Assembly: GCF_003387475.1 (NCBI RefSeq)
Contig: NZ_QUNO01000004.1
Location: forward strand, 124,001 to 188,000
Reading direction: 5' to 3'
DNA length: 64,000 nucleotides
DNA from: Kutzneria buriramensis
GTDB taxonomy: Bacteria > Actinomycetota > Actinomycetes > Mycobacteriales > Pseudonocardiaceae
Below, in pieces: positions 25,739 to 30,109 of the stretch (its first letter is position 1; the number at the start of each line of letters is the position of its first letter). The position numbers and the translations under genes were made by a program. Below the pieces are notes generated by a model, which ran no database searches, had not been told where the DNA came from, and saw nothing but the letters and a program-made list of their open reading frames with translations.

Positions 25739-26308
25739 TTCTGGGTCTCCCGGTGCTCACTGCAAGCAGGTCTGGTGGTGTCCCCTGCCGCGACTCGCGC
25801 GGTCGCCGCAGTGCAACGGCCTGTCCGGACGAGAGTCGTGGGCGCCGGATCACGTTCCGACACTCAGTGGCACGGGCGCGCGAAGACGCCCGCTACCAGC
25901 GGGAGACCTTTCGAGGGTACGCAGCCGAGCGCCGGTTCTCAAATCGGCCCCTCCACCACCCCATCAGGCGACAGACGGGTCACGGTGGGGGAGTGACCGG
26001 CAGGTTCGTCTTGTGGCGGCTGCCACGCCTTGTTAGCGTGCTCCTCCGCGGTTTTGACTCGGGACCAGCCCGAGGCTCCCGACACGTGGCGCCGAGCCGT
26101 CCGCACGGAACCCGGACCCCGTCGCTGGCCAGACCCAGTGCGAGGCGCCGAAGTGTCCCGGCGTACCTTCGTGCACAGTTGTGGACAACCTGTGGACTAC
26201 ACGGTCCCGACGTCCACGACACCACCGGACGTGACGATCTGGGGCTGCTGCGCATTCGCCGGCCGACCCCGGCGTGAGCGGATCAGGCGAGGGGAGGGGA
26301 GCAGGGAC
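25739..26308. other. rpmH-dnaA divergent intergenic region
   Basis: The 570-bp gap holds the divergent promoters of rpmH and dnaA. I see no gene in it. Two DnaA boxes lie 110-130 bp before dnaA and are listed separately. No -10/-35 pair is convincing; TACCTT at 26164-26169 is a weak candidate for dnaA. Confidence 0.6.
26180..26199 (-). promoter_or_regulatory. DnaA boxes in the dnaA promoter region
   Basis: TGTGGACAA (26180-26188, the reverse complement of TTGTCCACA) and TGTGGACTA (26191-26199, one mismatch) are 11 bp apart. Such boxes upstream of dnaA usually mediate autorepression. Confidence 0.75.
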
Positions 26309-27862
26309 GTGTCCGACGACCAGACCAACCTCGGTCAGGTGTGGGACCAGGTCGTCCAGGAACTGCTCGCCGCGGGGGCCCTGTCCTCCCTACAGCGCGC
26401 CTGGATGCGGGTGACTCGGCCGATCGGGCTGCTGGACGGCACGGTCCTGCTCGGCGCGCCGAGCGACTTCGCCAAGGAAGCCATCGAGCGGGCGCTGCGC
26501 GATCCGATCACCGCCGCGCTGTCCCGGCGACTGGGCCGCCCGGTGTCACTGGCCGTCAAGGTCGACACCGTGGTGCCACGCACCGCCACCCCCGGCCCGC
26601 CGCCGCCCCCCGCCCCGCAGCCGATGCCGCTCCTCACCAACCCCACGCCGCGCCCGCCGGCCGTCGCGCCCGCGGAGCAGACCGCGCCGATGGCGGCGAT
26701 CACCGTGTCCGAGGACGGCGAATCCGAGGACGAGGTGGACGAGGAGCGCGAGGCGCTGGCCACCGTGCACGAGATCTGGCCGACGTTCAGCGGGCCGCCG
26801 GCCGCGCAGCCGAGCCAGACCAACTCGCAGACCCGGCTCAACGAGAAGTACACGTTCGACACGTTCGTCATCGGCGCGTCCAACCGGTTCGCCCACGCCG
26901 CCGCGGTGGCGGTGGCCGAGGCGCCGGCCCGCGCGTACAACCCGCTGTTCATCTGGGGCGAGTCCGGCCTGGGCAAGACCCACCTGCTGCACGCCGTCGG
27001 GCACTACGCCCAGCGGCTGTTCCCGGGGATGCGGGTGCGCTACGTGTCCACCGAGGAGTTCACCAACGACTTCATCAACTCCCTGCGGGACGACCGCAAG
27101 ATCGCCTTCCAGCGCCGCTACCGGGACATCGACGTGCTGCTCGTCGACGACATCCAGTTCCTGGAGGGCAAGGAAGGCACGCAGGAGGAGTTCTTCCACA
27201 CCTTCAACACGCTGCACAACTCGAACAAGCAGATCGTGGTGTCCTCCGACCGGCCGCCGAAACGGCTGGAGACCCTGGAGGACCGCCTGCGCACCCGGTT
27301 CGAGTGGGGCCTGATCACCGACATCCAGCCGCCCGAGCTGGAGACCCGGATCGCCATCCTGCGCAAGAAGGCCGCGCAGGACCGGCTGGCCGCGCCGGCA
27401 GAGGTGCTGGAGTTCATCGCCGCCCGGATCGAGCGCAACATCCGGGAGCTGGAGGGCGCGCTGATCCGGGTGACCGCGTTCGCGTCGCTGAACCGGCAGC
27501 CGGTGGACGTGCAGCTGGCCGAGATCGTGCTGCGGGACCTGATCCCGGACTCGCACGCCCCCGAGATCACCGCACCGACCATCATGGCCGTGACCGCCGA
27601 GTTCTTCGGCGTGACGATCGACGACCTGTGCGGGCCGGGCAAGACCAAGGCGCTGGCCCAGGCCCGGCAGATCTCCATGTACCTGTGCCGCGAGCTGACC
27701 GACCTGTCGCTGCCCAAGATCGGGCAGACCTTCGGCGGCCGCGACCACACCACGGTCATGCACGCGGACAAGAAGATCCGCAAGGAGATGGCCGAGCGCC
27801 GGCGCATCTACGACCAGGTGCAGGAGCTGACCTCCCGCATCAAGCAGCGCGCCCGCGCCTGA
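26309..27862 (+). CDS. dnaA: Chromosomal replication initiator DnaA
   Basis: The 517-residue initiator has domain I at about 8-85, a Pro-rich acidic linker (about 90-170), the AAA+ domain with [11 protein letters not shown] (217-227) and [13 protein letters not shown], and domain IV with [19 protein letters not shown] and the box-recognition signature [14 protein letters not shown] at 26309 gives the standard N-terminus [12 protein letters not shown] and follows a purine-rich AGGGGAGGGGAG. Autoregulation by the DnaA boxes upstream is likely. Confidence 0.97.
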
Positions 27863-27877
27863 CCCCGTTTCGCCCCT

Positions 27878-27907
27878 GAGCGGCCCCCGACTTTCGGCGG
27901 GCCGCTC
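27878..27907 (+). terminator. Hairpin after dnaA
   Basis: GAGCGGCCC and GGGCCGCTC form a 9-bp stem with a 12-nt loop, 15 bp after the dnaA stop, without U-tract. It probably keeps dnaA transcripts out of oriC. Confidence 0.55.
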
Positions 27908-27943
27908 GCGGCTGTCCGGCCCTTGGCCCGCGACGCCGACTCC

Positions 27944-28513
27944 TTTCTCACCGACCACCCCGGTCCGCCGCCGAGCACGGTGAGAAACCAGCCGGCCGAC
28001 GGCCGATCGGCGACGCATCTTTCTCACCGCGCCCTCGACAGCGTCACCCGACCCGGTGAGAAACCCCTTGCTTCGGTCGGCCCCTCCGCGCGCCGCCCCG
28101 CCCATCGACGGGCCGACCGGCACCTTTCTCAGGGAACGCGACCGGCGCCTTTCTGCTCGGCGCCGCGCCCCGGTCTGCCGCCTCGACCAGAAAAGTGCGC
28201 GCCGATCGGCGGCCCGTGGGTCCGGGCGAACTTTCTGAGAACCGTCCCGGCCCCGCCACCCGTCCCGTCAGAAAGGTCGGTGGCCGCGCCCCGGGGTCCC
28301 CACCCTCGCCTCGCGCCGGCCGGAGCTTTCTGGCCGACCGCCGGATCGGCCCGCCGGCCCCCTCAGAAAGGCGCCGCGACCTGCGTGCGGCATCGTGATC
28401 TTGGCGACGACGCGACCCGTCGCCGGCCGTCGACCCCGCCGTCCGCAACCCCCGGTCGATGAACTTTTCTGGCGGGCCGGGGTGCCCGATCAGCCCCGGC
28501 TCCCAGAAAAGTT
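27944..28513. repeat. Iterated TTTCT/AGAAA inverted repeats in the left half of oriC
   Basis: Thirteen TTTCT or AGAAA elements occur in very GC-rich DNA, mostly as inverted pairs. TTTCTCACCG/CGGTGAGAAA: 27944/27978 and again 28020/28054 (76-bp period). CTTTCTG with CAGAAAAG: 28149/28188. CTTTCTGA/TCAGAAAG: 28231/28268. CTTTCTG/CAGAAAG: 28326/28364. AACTTTTCTGG/CCAGAAAAGTT: 28462/28503, the last arm overlapping the first DnaA box. Arm spacing is 34-41 bp. One extra CTTTCTC is at 28124. I know no named oriC element of this form. Confidence 0.8.
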
Positions 28514-28520
28514 GTCCACA
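28512..28520 (+). promoter_or_regulatory. DnaA box (TTGTCCACA)
   Basis: Perfect actinobacterial DnaA box. It overlaps the right arm of the last inverted repeat of the left oriC array. Confidence 0.85.
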
Positions 28521-28602: not shown

Positions 28603-28611
28603 TGTGGACAA
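28603..28611 (-). promoter_or_regulatory. DnaA box (TTGTCCACA, reverse)
   Basis: TGTGGACAA on the plus strand; it follows a CCCACATCTGGGGAT 15-mer (28583-28597) that recurs inside the dciA gene. Confidence 0.85.
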
Positions 28612-28649
28612 CTTCGCCGATCTGTGGACCGTTCGGAGCAGCCGGGAAG

Positions 28650-28678
28650 TTGTCCACGGGGTCCCCGAGTTGTCCACC
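28650..28678 (+). promoter_or_regulatory. Pair of DnaA box variants
   Basis: TTGTCCACG (28650-28658) and TTGTCCACC (28670-28678) are in direct orientation 20 bp apart; each has one mismatch at the last position. Confidence 0.65.
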
Positions 28679-28736
28679 GGTCACCCGGGGTACTTGCCCA
28701 CACCCCCGGCCATCACCTGAACAGCGCAAACCCCGG

Positions 28737-28745
28737 TTGTCCACA
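28737..28745 (+). promoter_or_regulatory. DnaA box next to the AT-rich stretch
   Basis: Perfect TTGTCCACA; a degenerate CAATCCACA follows at 28746. It is the box nearest the likely unwinding element. Confidence 0.8.
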
Positions 28746-28972
28746 CAATCCACACCCCTTACTGCTGTTACTGGATATCTCTTCGAAGAGATGAAAAGAA
28801 GAAAAACAGGGGGTGGCCGAAGTTGGGGACAGCGCCGGTTCGCGACGGGAAGCCCCGACATGACGAAGCGGCCCCGCACGCTCTACCGTTGGGCTCCCCT
28901 AGGACCCGGTCGTGTGCCGAGCCCGGACGACACGGGGACGACCACGGTCGTGCCGAAGGAAAGGACGCCCTC

Positions 28973-30109
28973 ATGAAGATCCGCGTCGAGCGCGACGGTC
29001 TAGCCGACGCCGTGGCCTGGGTCGCACGAAGCCTGCCGTCCAGGCCGCCGGTCCCGGTCCTCGGCGGTGTCCTACTGGACGCCGGCTCGGACGAGGGTGA
29101 CACCGGCGACGCGTTGACGGTGTCGGGCTTCGACTACGAGGTCTCGGCGCAGGTCGGCGTCCCGGCCACGATCGCGGCCGGCGGCAAGACCCTGGTCTCC
29201 GGCCGACTGCTCGCCGACATCACCAAGGCGCTGCCCAACCACCCGGTGGAGATCGCCGTCGACGGCGCCCGCGTCTCGATCACGTGTGGCAGCGCCAAGT
29301 TCAGCCTGCCGACCATGCCGGTCGAGGACTACCCGGCGCTGCCGGCGATGCCGCAGCGGGCGGGCGCGCTGGCCGGCGAGGTGTTCGCCGAGGCGGTCGG
29401 CCAGGTCGCGGTCGCCGCCGGCAAGGACGACACGCTGCCGATGCTCACCGGTGTCCGGGTCGAGTTCAACGGCGGCAAGCTGACCCTGGTCGCCACCGAC
29501 CGGTTCCGGCTGGCGATGCGCGAGTTCGACTGGGAGCCGGCCGACGAGGTCGACACCGCGGTCCTGGTGCCGGCCCGCAACCTGGCCGACGCGGCCAAGA
29601 CGCTGGGCGGCGCCGGCTCGACGGTCGAGCTCTCGCTGGCCTCCGGCGACGGCCTGCTCGGCCTGTCGGGCACCGGGCGGCGAACCACCAGTCGACTTCT
29701 GGATGCCGAATTCCCGAAGTACCGGCAACTTCTGCCCGCTGAGCACAACGCGGCTGCGATCATCGACGTGTCCTCGCTCCAGGACGCGATCAAGCGAGTC
29801 TCGCTGGTGGCCGAGCGCGGCACCCAGGTCCGGCTGGAGTTCAGCGACGGCGGCCTGCGGCTGTCCGCGGGCGGCGACGACGAGGGCAGCGCCGAGGAGG
29901 AGCTGCCGGTCGAGTTCACCGGCGAGCCCGTGACGATCGCGTTCAACCCGGGCTATCTGCTCGACGGCCTGGCGGCTGTGCGCACGGATCGTGCCCACTT
30001 GTCGTTCACCACACCGAGCCGGCCCGCGTTGATCAAGCCGGTGGGCGAGGATGGAGGCGTGGTGGAGGGCTACCTCTACCTGCTGATGCCGGTGCGCCTG
30101 CCCGGCTGA
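28973..30109 (+). CDS. dnaN: DNA polymerase III beta sliding clamp
   Basis: The 378-residue clamp starts [19 protein letters not shown] and shows the usual three-domain pattern: [10 protein letters not shown] in domain 1, [29 protein letters not shown] in domain 2, and the C-terminal [10 protein letters not shown] that ends all clamps. It encircles DNA and tethers the polymerase. ATG at 28973 follows GAAAGGACG. Gene order dnaA-oriC-dnaN is conserved. Confidence 0.97.

What the first reader, a model, noticed from the sequence alone, without database searches (positions are those of the whole stretch)
27944..28513. Iterated inverted-repeat array fills the left half of oriC
Between dnaA and the first DnaA box, thirteen TTTCT/AGAAA elements occur in otherwise extremely GC-rich DNA, mostly as inverted pairs with 34-41 bp between matching arms. 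Two pairs share CGGTGAGAAACC and repeat with an exact 76-bp period (27944/27978 and 28020/28054). The last pair has 11-bp perfect arms (28462/28503), and its right arm overlaps the first DnaA box. Alternating orientation and even spacing suggest a protein that binds as dimers or wraps DNA next to DnaA, or hairpins on single strands. I know no named oriC element like it.
Basis: partly seen in the sequence, partly recalled or inferred. Interest (0 to 1): 0.78.

Follow-up and report, generated by a model that had tools for sequence, protein, structure and literature searches.

The report
Paired-repeat array at replication origin
Next to the DnaA sites of the chromosome origin, this actinobacterium and a number of its relatives carry paired short DNA sites held 38 to 41 bases apart, which look like docking places of an unidentified protein that acts at the start of DNA replication.

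Summary
Thirteen TTTCT[GC] sites lie in 570 bp between dnaA and the first DnaA box, against 3 in the other 63,430 bp of the window. Twelve form six convergent pairs, TTTCTS-N31/32-SAGAAA, starts 38-39 bp apart; shuffles give none. All 5 same-genus oriCs fetched, and 13 of 44 sampled genera of the family (Pseudonocardiaceae, inferred), have such pairs: 128 at 38-41 bp in 101 oriC stretches, against 1 divergent pair and 0.1 per shuffle round. In the 7 same-genus genomes searched, 29 of 31 pairs at 38-41 bp lie at oriC. The arms do not covary within genera, and the base after TTTCT is G or C independently in each arm, so hairpins are disfavoured. Best reading: each pair is the duplex site of a protein dimer with two well-separated DNA-binding units, arrayed beside DnaA and controlling origin firing. 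The protein is unknown. AdpA, MtrA, DnaA, parS, LexA, EspR and Lrp motifs do not fit. Eight origin-related library searches listed no paper that describes it.

The parts
26279..27862 (+). dnaA, the upstream border of the region
   Evidence: Pfam Bac_DnaA and Bac_DnaA_C; stop codon at 27860-27862
27944..27987 (.). module 1: TTTCTC-N32-GAGAAA, start-to-start 39 bp
28020..28063 (.). module 2: same, 39 bp; 76 bp after module 1
28125..28130 (+). single unpaired half-site TTTCTC
28150..28193 (.). module 3: TTTCTG ... CAGAAA, 39 bp
28232..28274 (.). module 4: TTTCTG ... CAGAAA, 38 bp
28327..28369 (.). module 5: TTTCTG ... CAGAAA, 38 bp
28462..28513 (.). module 6: core 28466-28509, 39 bp, with 11-bp perfect arms AACTTTTCTGG / CCAGAAAAGTT; the right arm shares 2 bp with the first DnaA box
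   Evidence: the same arrangement in the 4 same-genus oriCs readable there (L091, L092, L094, L095)
28512..28520 (+). first DnaA box TTGTCCACA, start of the DnaA-box cluster
28603..28745 (.). rest of the DnaA-box cluster (TGTGGACAA 28603; TTGTCCAC 28650, 28670; TTGTCCACA 28737)
   Evidence: read directly; repeats D1 and I24
28770..28815 (.). AT-rich tract, probable unwinding element
   Evidence: role inferred
28973..30109 (+). dnaN, the downstream border of the region
   Evidence: Pfam DNA_pol3_beta domains

Best explanation
Shown: the left half of this oriC is an array of about 44-bp modules, each made of two inverted half-sites, consensus (R)A-N2-TTTCT-(G>C), 39 bp apart (38-41 across the family), in oriC DNA on the dnaA side and rarely elsewhere in the genome. 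Inferred: each module is bound as duplex DNA by a sequence-specific protein whose dimer (or larger oligomer) holds two DNA-binding units nearly four turns apart. The protein loads several modules to form a nucleoprotein patch beside the DnaA cluster. In this genus the last module shares 2 bp with the first DnaA box, so occupancy should help or hinder DnaA loading there. The likeliest role is control of initiation, more probably restraint than help, as with AdpA at the 5' end of Streptomyces oriC; the sign is a guess.
For: Tight convergent spacing: 128 of 160 convergent TTTCTS pairs within 120 bp lie at 38-41 bp; 1 divergent pair at 38-41 bp, and 0.1 convergent pairs per shuffle round. The own genus and 12 further genera carry it. 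Spacing is genus-specific within that range: mostly 39 in the own genus, 40 in every pair of g25 and g13 and in 13 of 15 pairs of g46. Location: 29 of 31 pairs at 38-41 bp in 7 same-genus genomes lie at oriC. A base outside the search pattern confirms it: A at -3 stands in both arms of 75 of 128 oriC pairs and in at least one arm of 112, but in both arms of 1 and in at least one of 4 of the 12 off-origin pairs. Site columns are more conserved than other aligned columns in 4 of 4 same-genus comparisons. Arms vary independently within genera. In oriCs with pairs, 256 of 347 sites are paired. The last 327 residues of DnaA are 97-99% identical to the window's in 8 genomes of g8, which have no exact pair, so a changed DnaA is an unlikely reader.
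Against: No binding protein, footprint or phenotype is known. 31 of 44 sampled genera show no exact pair, so it cannot be essential to initiation across the family. Modules differ in number (1-6) and position between species. No helical phasing between modules remained after de-duplication. Overlap with a DnaA box at the module's edge was seen in this genus only. Off-origin pairs exist: among matches listed for 14 other array-bearing genomes, 30 of 39 at 38-41 bp are at oriC, and G090 has 4 elsewhere against 3 at oriC (listing truncated).
Confidence: 0.72

Rival explanations
1. The pairs are hairpins or cruciforms, formed on single-stranded origin DNA or in the 3' end of the dnaA transcript, and act through structure.
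For: Inverted repeats by construction; module 6 has 11-bp perfect arms and a further partly complementary interior (I4); in 60 of 77 non-redundant modules the RNA minimum-energy fold pairs all five core bases; pooled arm matching is slightly above permuted (0.397 against 0.367, p=0.0097), and p<0.0001 in the own genus when orthologous pairs are all counted.
Against: Non-redundant within-genus tests are not significant (own genus p=0.063, others p=0.338). The base after TTTCT mismatches in 20 of 77 pairs, as independence predicts. Mean loop-shuffle z is only -0.28. A hairpin with a loop of about 30 nt gives no reason for a fixed 38-41 bp spacing. No Rfam match reached a gathering score.
Confidence: 0.1
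2. The half-sites are divergent low-affinity DnaA sites.
For: They lie beside the DnaA cluster; DnaA-like words (at most 1 mismatch) are commoner inside modules than between them (3.34 against 0.80 per kb).
Against: At the best fixed offset only 8 of 154 arms fit TTNTCCACA with 2 mismatches. Relatives without exact pairs have nearly the same DnaA (g8). The fixed convergent geometry differs from that of the DnaA cluster in this window.
Confidence: 0.06
3. The array is recognised by a known global actinobacterial regulator (AdpA, MtrA, an EspR-like or Lrp-like nucleoid protein) that also binds elsewhere.
For: AdpA binds the 5' end of Streptomyces oriC (PMC3411110); MtrA binds M. tuberculosis oriC (PMC4285127); EspR uses TTTGC[TC][GA] with an inverted pair CAGCAAA<16>TTTGCTC (PMC3315491).
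Against: AdpA and MtrA consensus words are not found at a fixed offset in most arms. The EspR core differs and its pair points the other way. The outer half of a Lrp box (recalled) is absent: A at -8 is 5-8%. Such regulators bind many loci; these pairs are concentrated at oriC.
Confidence: 0.15
4. Remnants of a mobile element or MITE that duplicated inside the intergenic region.
For: 76-bp tandem period of modules 1-2; copy number varies between species.
Against: Few copies elsewhere in the genome; the DNA inside modules differs while spacing and arms persist in 13 genera.
Confidence: 0.02

Closest known systems
AdpA boxes at the 5' end of Streptomyces coelicolor oriC (PMC3411110, abstract and passages seen)
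   Same: Non-DnaA sites at the 5' end of an actinobacterial oriC, beside DnaA boxes; the protein competes with DnaA
   Different: Consensus TGGCSNGWWY, three boxes, two of them overlapping, no such dyad described; AdpA also regulates many genes
MtrA boxes in Mycobacterium tuberculosis oriC (PMC4285127, passages seen)
   Same: Regulator sites inside an actinobacterial oriC
   Different: Direct repeats of a GTCACAgcg-like word, dispersed among the DnaA boxes
RctB 39-mers of Vibrio cholerae ori2 (PMC5395669, passages seen)
   Same: A second class of long site beside an origin, there inhibitory; functional analogy only
   Different: Bound by the initiator RctB itself, as monomers; another replicon type
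EspR sites of M. tuberculosis (PMC3315491, passages seen)
   Same: Inverted T-rich half-sites with a long spacer, read by dimers that form higher oligomers
   Different: TTTGC[TC][GA] core, divergent pair with 16-bp spacer, hundreds of sites genome-wide

Membership tests
AdpA-binding oriC sites | TGGCSNGWWY consensus at the site | tested here: not met
   best fixed offset: 2 of 154 arms with at most 1 mismatch (0.2 expected), 11 of 154 with at most 2 (1.7 expected)
AdpA-binding oriC sites | located at the dnaA-proximal (5') end of oriC next to DnaA boxes | tested here: met
   in the window the array lies between dnaA and the first DnaA box
MtrA boxes | direct repeats of GTCACAGCG-like words | tested here: not met
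   0 of 154 arms with 1 mismatch, 2 of 154 with 2; the loose half-word GTNAC fits 35 of 154 arms with 1 mismatch over the TTTC core (5.4 expected); the pairs are inverted
DnaA boxes | TTNTCCACA word | tested here: not met
   best fixed offset 3 of 154 arms (1 mismatch), 8 of 154 (2 mismatches)
parS / ParB sites | GTTTCACGTGAAAC (recalled) | tested here: not met
   0 of 154 arms with at most 2 mismatches
LexA/SOS boxes | GAAC-N4-GTTC (recalled) | tested here: not met
   best fixed offset 0 of 154 arms (1 mismatch), 5 of 154 (2 mismatches)
EspR sites | TTTGC[TC][GA] core, genome-wide distribution | tested here: not met
   core here is TTTCT[GC]; pairs are concentrated at oriC; EspR motif from PMC3315491
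Lrp/AsnC boxes | 15-bp palindrome YAGHAWATTWTDCTR (recalled) | tested here: not met
   the outer YAG half is absent: A at -8 is 5-8%, G at -7 is 31-35%
oriC regulator-binding sites in general | bound by a protein that changes initiation | not testable with these tools
   needs binding and replication assays

The most novel reading that the evidence does not exclude
Part of the family Pseudonocardiaceae has a dedicated, undescribed replication-control protein whose main target is oriC: a long-span dimer that reads paired TTTCTS half-sites nearly four helical turns apart and titrates or gates DnaA loading. Module number (1 to 6 in the sampled genomes) tunes its strength, and lineages such as Amycolatopsis have lost it.
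Probability: 0.5. Interest if true: 0.85.

Novelty: new variant of a known kind. Interest (0 to 1): 0.74.

Why it matters
Origin-binding regulators are known in detail in few bacteria; for actinomycetes the review seen here (PMC4285127, passages) names AdpA, MtrA and IciA. This array is a precise bait: one labelled 60-bp fragment and an arm-mutated control could pull out an unknown replication regulator from antibiotic producers such as Saccharopolyspora. It also gives a sequence signature for annotating oriC in part of this family.

Tried and rejected
Hairpin reading: tested by arm permutation and loop-shuffle folding and disfavoured. The first version gave p<0.0001 in the own genus, where orthologous pairs were counted repeatedly; the non-redundant test gave p=0.063.

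Helical phasing between modules: p=0.0008 on raw gaps; p=0.50 (gaps up to 170 bp) and 0.19 (up to 320 bp) after collapsing repeated gaps within a genus; rejected.

Degenerate pairs in genomes without exact pairs: a PWM scan found a few, and an unbiased inverted-repeat scan showed no distinct peak at 39 bp (39 and 41 were among many similar values).

Off-origin pairs at 38-41 bp: I fetched all 12 that searches list and that do not lie at oriC (loci L100, L200-L203, L205-L211). One has A at -3 in both arms (L202, a near-perfect inverted repeat close behind an open frame, terminator-like); two are the same conserved place in two species (L200, L201); two lie inside long high-GC3 open frames. Open frames beside the pairs in L200 (two) and L202 (one) gave no Pfam family; L200 and L201 hold no tRNA. 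Read as chance or terminators.

Viral contigs: one hit, in a 46% GC contig with other repeats; taken as unrelated. Plasmids: no match to the intergenic region. A strict ACTTTTCTG pair occurs in 1 of 200 genomes of the order, the own one. The ten proteins scanned around oriC are the usual ones, with no extra DNA-binding gene among them; rpmH and the gyrases were not scanned.

Full report
What was checked. The stretch 27944-28513 lies between dnaA (26279-27862) and dnaN (from 28973) in the usual actinobacterial origin neighbourhood: ParA-like, GidB/RsmG, R3H (Jag-like), YidC-like, RnpA, DnaA, DnaN, 6PGD-like, RecF-like, DciA. It holds 13 TTTCT/AGAAA words, all followed by G or C on the TTTCT strand. 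The rest of the window holds 3 such TTTCTS words in 63,430 bp, so density is about 480 times higher in the array. Twelve of the 13 form six convergent pairs with TTTCT-to-AGAAA distances of 39, 39, 39, 38, 38 and 39 bp. No shuffle reproduced a single pair (2000 shuffles of 658 bp; 100 whole-window shuffles).

Where it occurs. Of the 7 genomes of the genus, own included, 6 have a DnaA match (G005 has none). The 5 other oriCs fetched all carry pairs, 2 to 6 each, though L093 is largely masked with N. A first set of 63 oriC stretches (57 from other genera of the family, drawn one or more per genus before I knew which had pairs, plus the 6 of the genus) had at least one exact pair in 21. Two fetched stretches of 41 and 44 bp (L133, L160) were dropped as unusable, and G017 gave no DnaA match. 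A second set of 38 was chosen after that, 32 of them from genera known to have pairs, so percentages over the total are not unbiased. Over all 101 stretches, 50 genomes and 13 of 44 genera have at least one pair, 128 pairs in all. dnaN was found in 86 of the 101 stretches; in the others the intergenic region may continue beyond what I fetched. Among the 80 named dnaA loci, most of them outside the family and some outside the phylum, only the Saccharopolyspora locus L015 holds a pair at 38-41 bp (31 of the 80 were also listed site by site).

How tight it is. In the 101 stretches there are 160 convergent TTTCTS pairs within 120 bp, of which 10, 51, 62 and 5 lie at 38, 39, 40 and 41 bp. Divergent pairs at 38-41 bp number 1; shuffles give 0.1 of each per round (20 rounds). 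The own genus uses 38-40 bp, mostly 39; g25 and g13 use 40 throughout; g17 uses 41, 39 and (in 3 of 5 genomes) 38 at successive modules. In oriCs with pairs, 256 of 347 sites are in a pair.

Where else in the genome. Pattern TTTCTSN{22,50}SAGAAA in the 7 same-genus genomes: in the own genome 12 places, 6 at oriC. Over the 7 genomes, 31 places have a spacing of 38-41 bp, of which 29 are at oriC; the others are G000:C46:7092 and G004:C1:11200045 (counted from its listing). The strict version with ACYG extensions matched 5 of 297 family genomes: four of the own genus, all at oriC, and one of another genus (G156) on a contig that does not hold its dnaA. In 14 further array-bearing genomes 30 of 39 listed places at 38-41 bp are at oriC; the listing was cut, so G018, G057 and part of G104 are not in this count. 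The exception is G090 (g17), with 4 places elsewhere against 3 at oriC. To see whether off-origin places are the same thing I read the base at -3, which is not part of the pattern: in the 128 oriC pairs both arms have A in 75, one arm in 37, none in 16; in the 12 off-origin pairs both in 1, one in 3, none in 8. Off-origin pairs thus mostly lack the flanking signature.

What the half-site is. Over 77 non-redundant pairs the half-site reads (R)A-N2-TTTCT-(G>C): A at -3 in 75% of left and 62% of right arms, G at +5 in 90% and 74%. TTTCTS itself was the search seed, so its invariance is by construction; A at -3 and the spacing are not. Against the window sequence, site columns are more conserved than other aligned columns in each of 4 relatives (0.79 against 0.61; 0.79/0.65; 0.65/0.56; 0.79/0.50).

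Hairpin or protein. If arms paired with each other, a change in one should be matched in the other. Within genera there is no significant excess (own genus p=0.063, other genera p=0.338; the pooled set reaches p=0.0097, which mixes genera of different composition). At the base next to the core the left/right combinations are GG 53, GC 16, CG 4, CC 4, as expected for independent arms. Folding against shuffled interiors gives a mean z of -0.28. I therefore read the modules as duplex binding sites.

Higher order. Adjacent modules in the own genus often have a 37-bp gap, giving the 76-bp period. I tested whether all gaps follow the helical repeat; the apparent signal disappeared after collapsing repeated gaps. 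So geometry is strict within modules and loose between them. That argues for an independent dimer per module rather than one continuous filament. 39-40 bp is about 3.7-3.8 turns, so the two half-sites are not on the same face of straight B-DNA; some bending or a flexible linker is implied (inference).

Relation to DnaA. In the window, and in L091, L092, L094 and L095, the last module shares 2 bp with the first perfect TTGTCCACA box. In other genera the last module may end more than 200 bp before the first perfect box, enclose one (g2, g29, one g22), or lie beyond one (some g46, one g17). The last 327 residues of DnaA are 91-99% identical to the window's in the 59 genomes matched, and 97-99% in the 8 of g8, which have no exact pair, so a changed DnaA is an unlikely reader.

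Evolution. On a DnaN tree of 58 rows (quick method, many open forks) presence needs 7 changes against 18.3 for shuffled labels, and array-bearing genera sit in several deep branches. This fits an old trait with losses, for example in the Amycolatopsis branch, but the root and several forks are unsure; several gains are not excluded. g8 may keep one degenerate pair (CTTTCTG ... CTGGAAAAGTC and variants) in a conserved stretch; both arms are visible in 5 of the 8 stretches printed.

Known systems. AdpA, MtrA, DnaA, parS and LexA motifs do not fit most arms. The EspR motif was compared from PMC3315491, the Lrp box from memory. The analogues of function are AdpA at Streptomyces oriC (PMC3411110), MtrA (PMC4285127) and, more loosely, the inhibitory RctB 39-mers (PMC5395669). 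The only text I opened on an origin in this family, Kutzneria albida (PMC4210621, passages), calls its oriC a 1,044-nt region without classic DnaA boxes; the passages seen describe no such array. Eight origin-related library searches listed no paper on this element by title and abstract start; the lists were capped, only the papers named here were opened, and most subscription journals are not held.

Verdict. The feature is real, conserved, concentrated at oriC and, as far as I could search, undescribed. That it is a protein-binding array is well supported by sequence; the protein and the sign of its effect are unknown.

Noticed in passing
G116:C50:273026-273063 (genus g27): A perfect long palindrome joins two TTTCTG half-sites to DnaA-box-like words: TTTCTGGGGCTGTGGACAACTCTCCACAGCCCCAGAAA, spacing 33 bp, in the part of oriC nearer dnaN.
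   Followed up: no
L102, L103, L106, L107, L108 (genus g8), roughly 190 bp into the intergenic region: These five g8 oriCs share a conserved stretch with one degenerate convergent pair, CTTTCTG ... CTGGAAAAGTC and variants, perhaps a remnant of the module.
   Followed up: partly
window 28786-28815: The tract GAGATGAAAAGAAGAAAAACAGGGGGTGG is nearly identical in L091, L092, L094 and L095, and ACCCCCTGTTTTTCTT (its reverse strand) recurs in L105, L111 and L114 of other genera; probably part of the unwinding element.
   Followed up: no
window 27800-28500: The array region is C-rich on the + strand (GC skew about -0.11 to -0.24 in 200-bp windows), more so than the flanking genes.
   Followed up: no
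genus g27 (L131, L134, L170, L174, L175, L176, L178): Arrays vary inside one genus: 5 of 7 sampled oriCs have 2-5 pairs, 2 have none.
   Followed up: no
L121 (680-723), L104 (447-490) and L162 (279-322), intergenic coordinates: In genera g2, g29 and one g22 genome a perfect DnaA box lies inside a module, between its two half-sites.
   Followed up: partly
G224:C1:5595371-5595415 (L202): A near-perfect off-origin inverted repeat with the same spacing of 40 bp and A at -3 in both arms, 12 bp behind an open frame without a Pfam match; terminator or a rare second target.
   Followed up: partly
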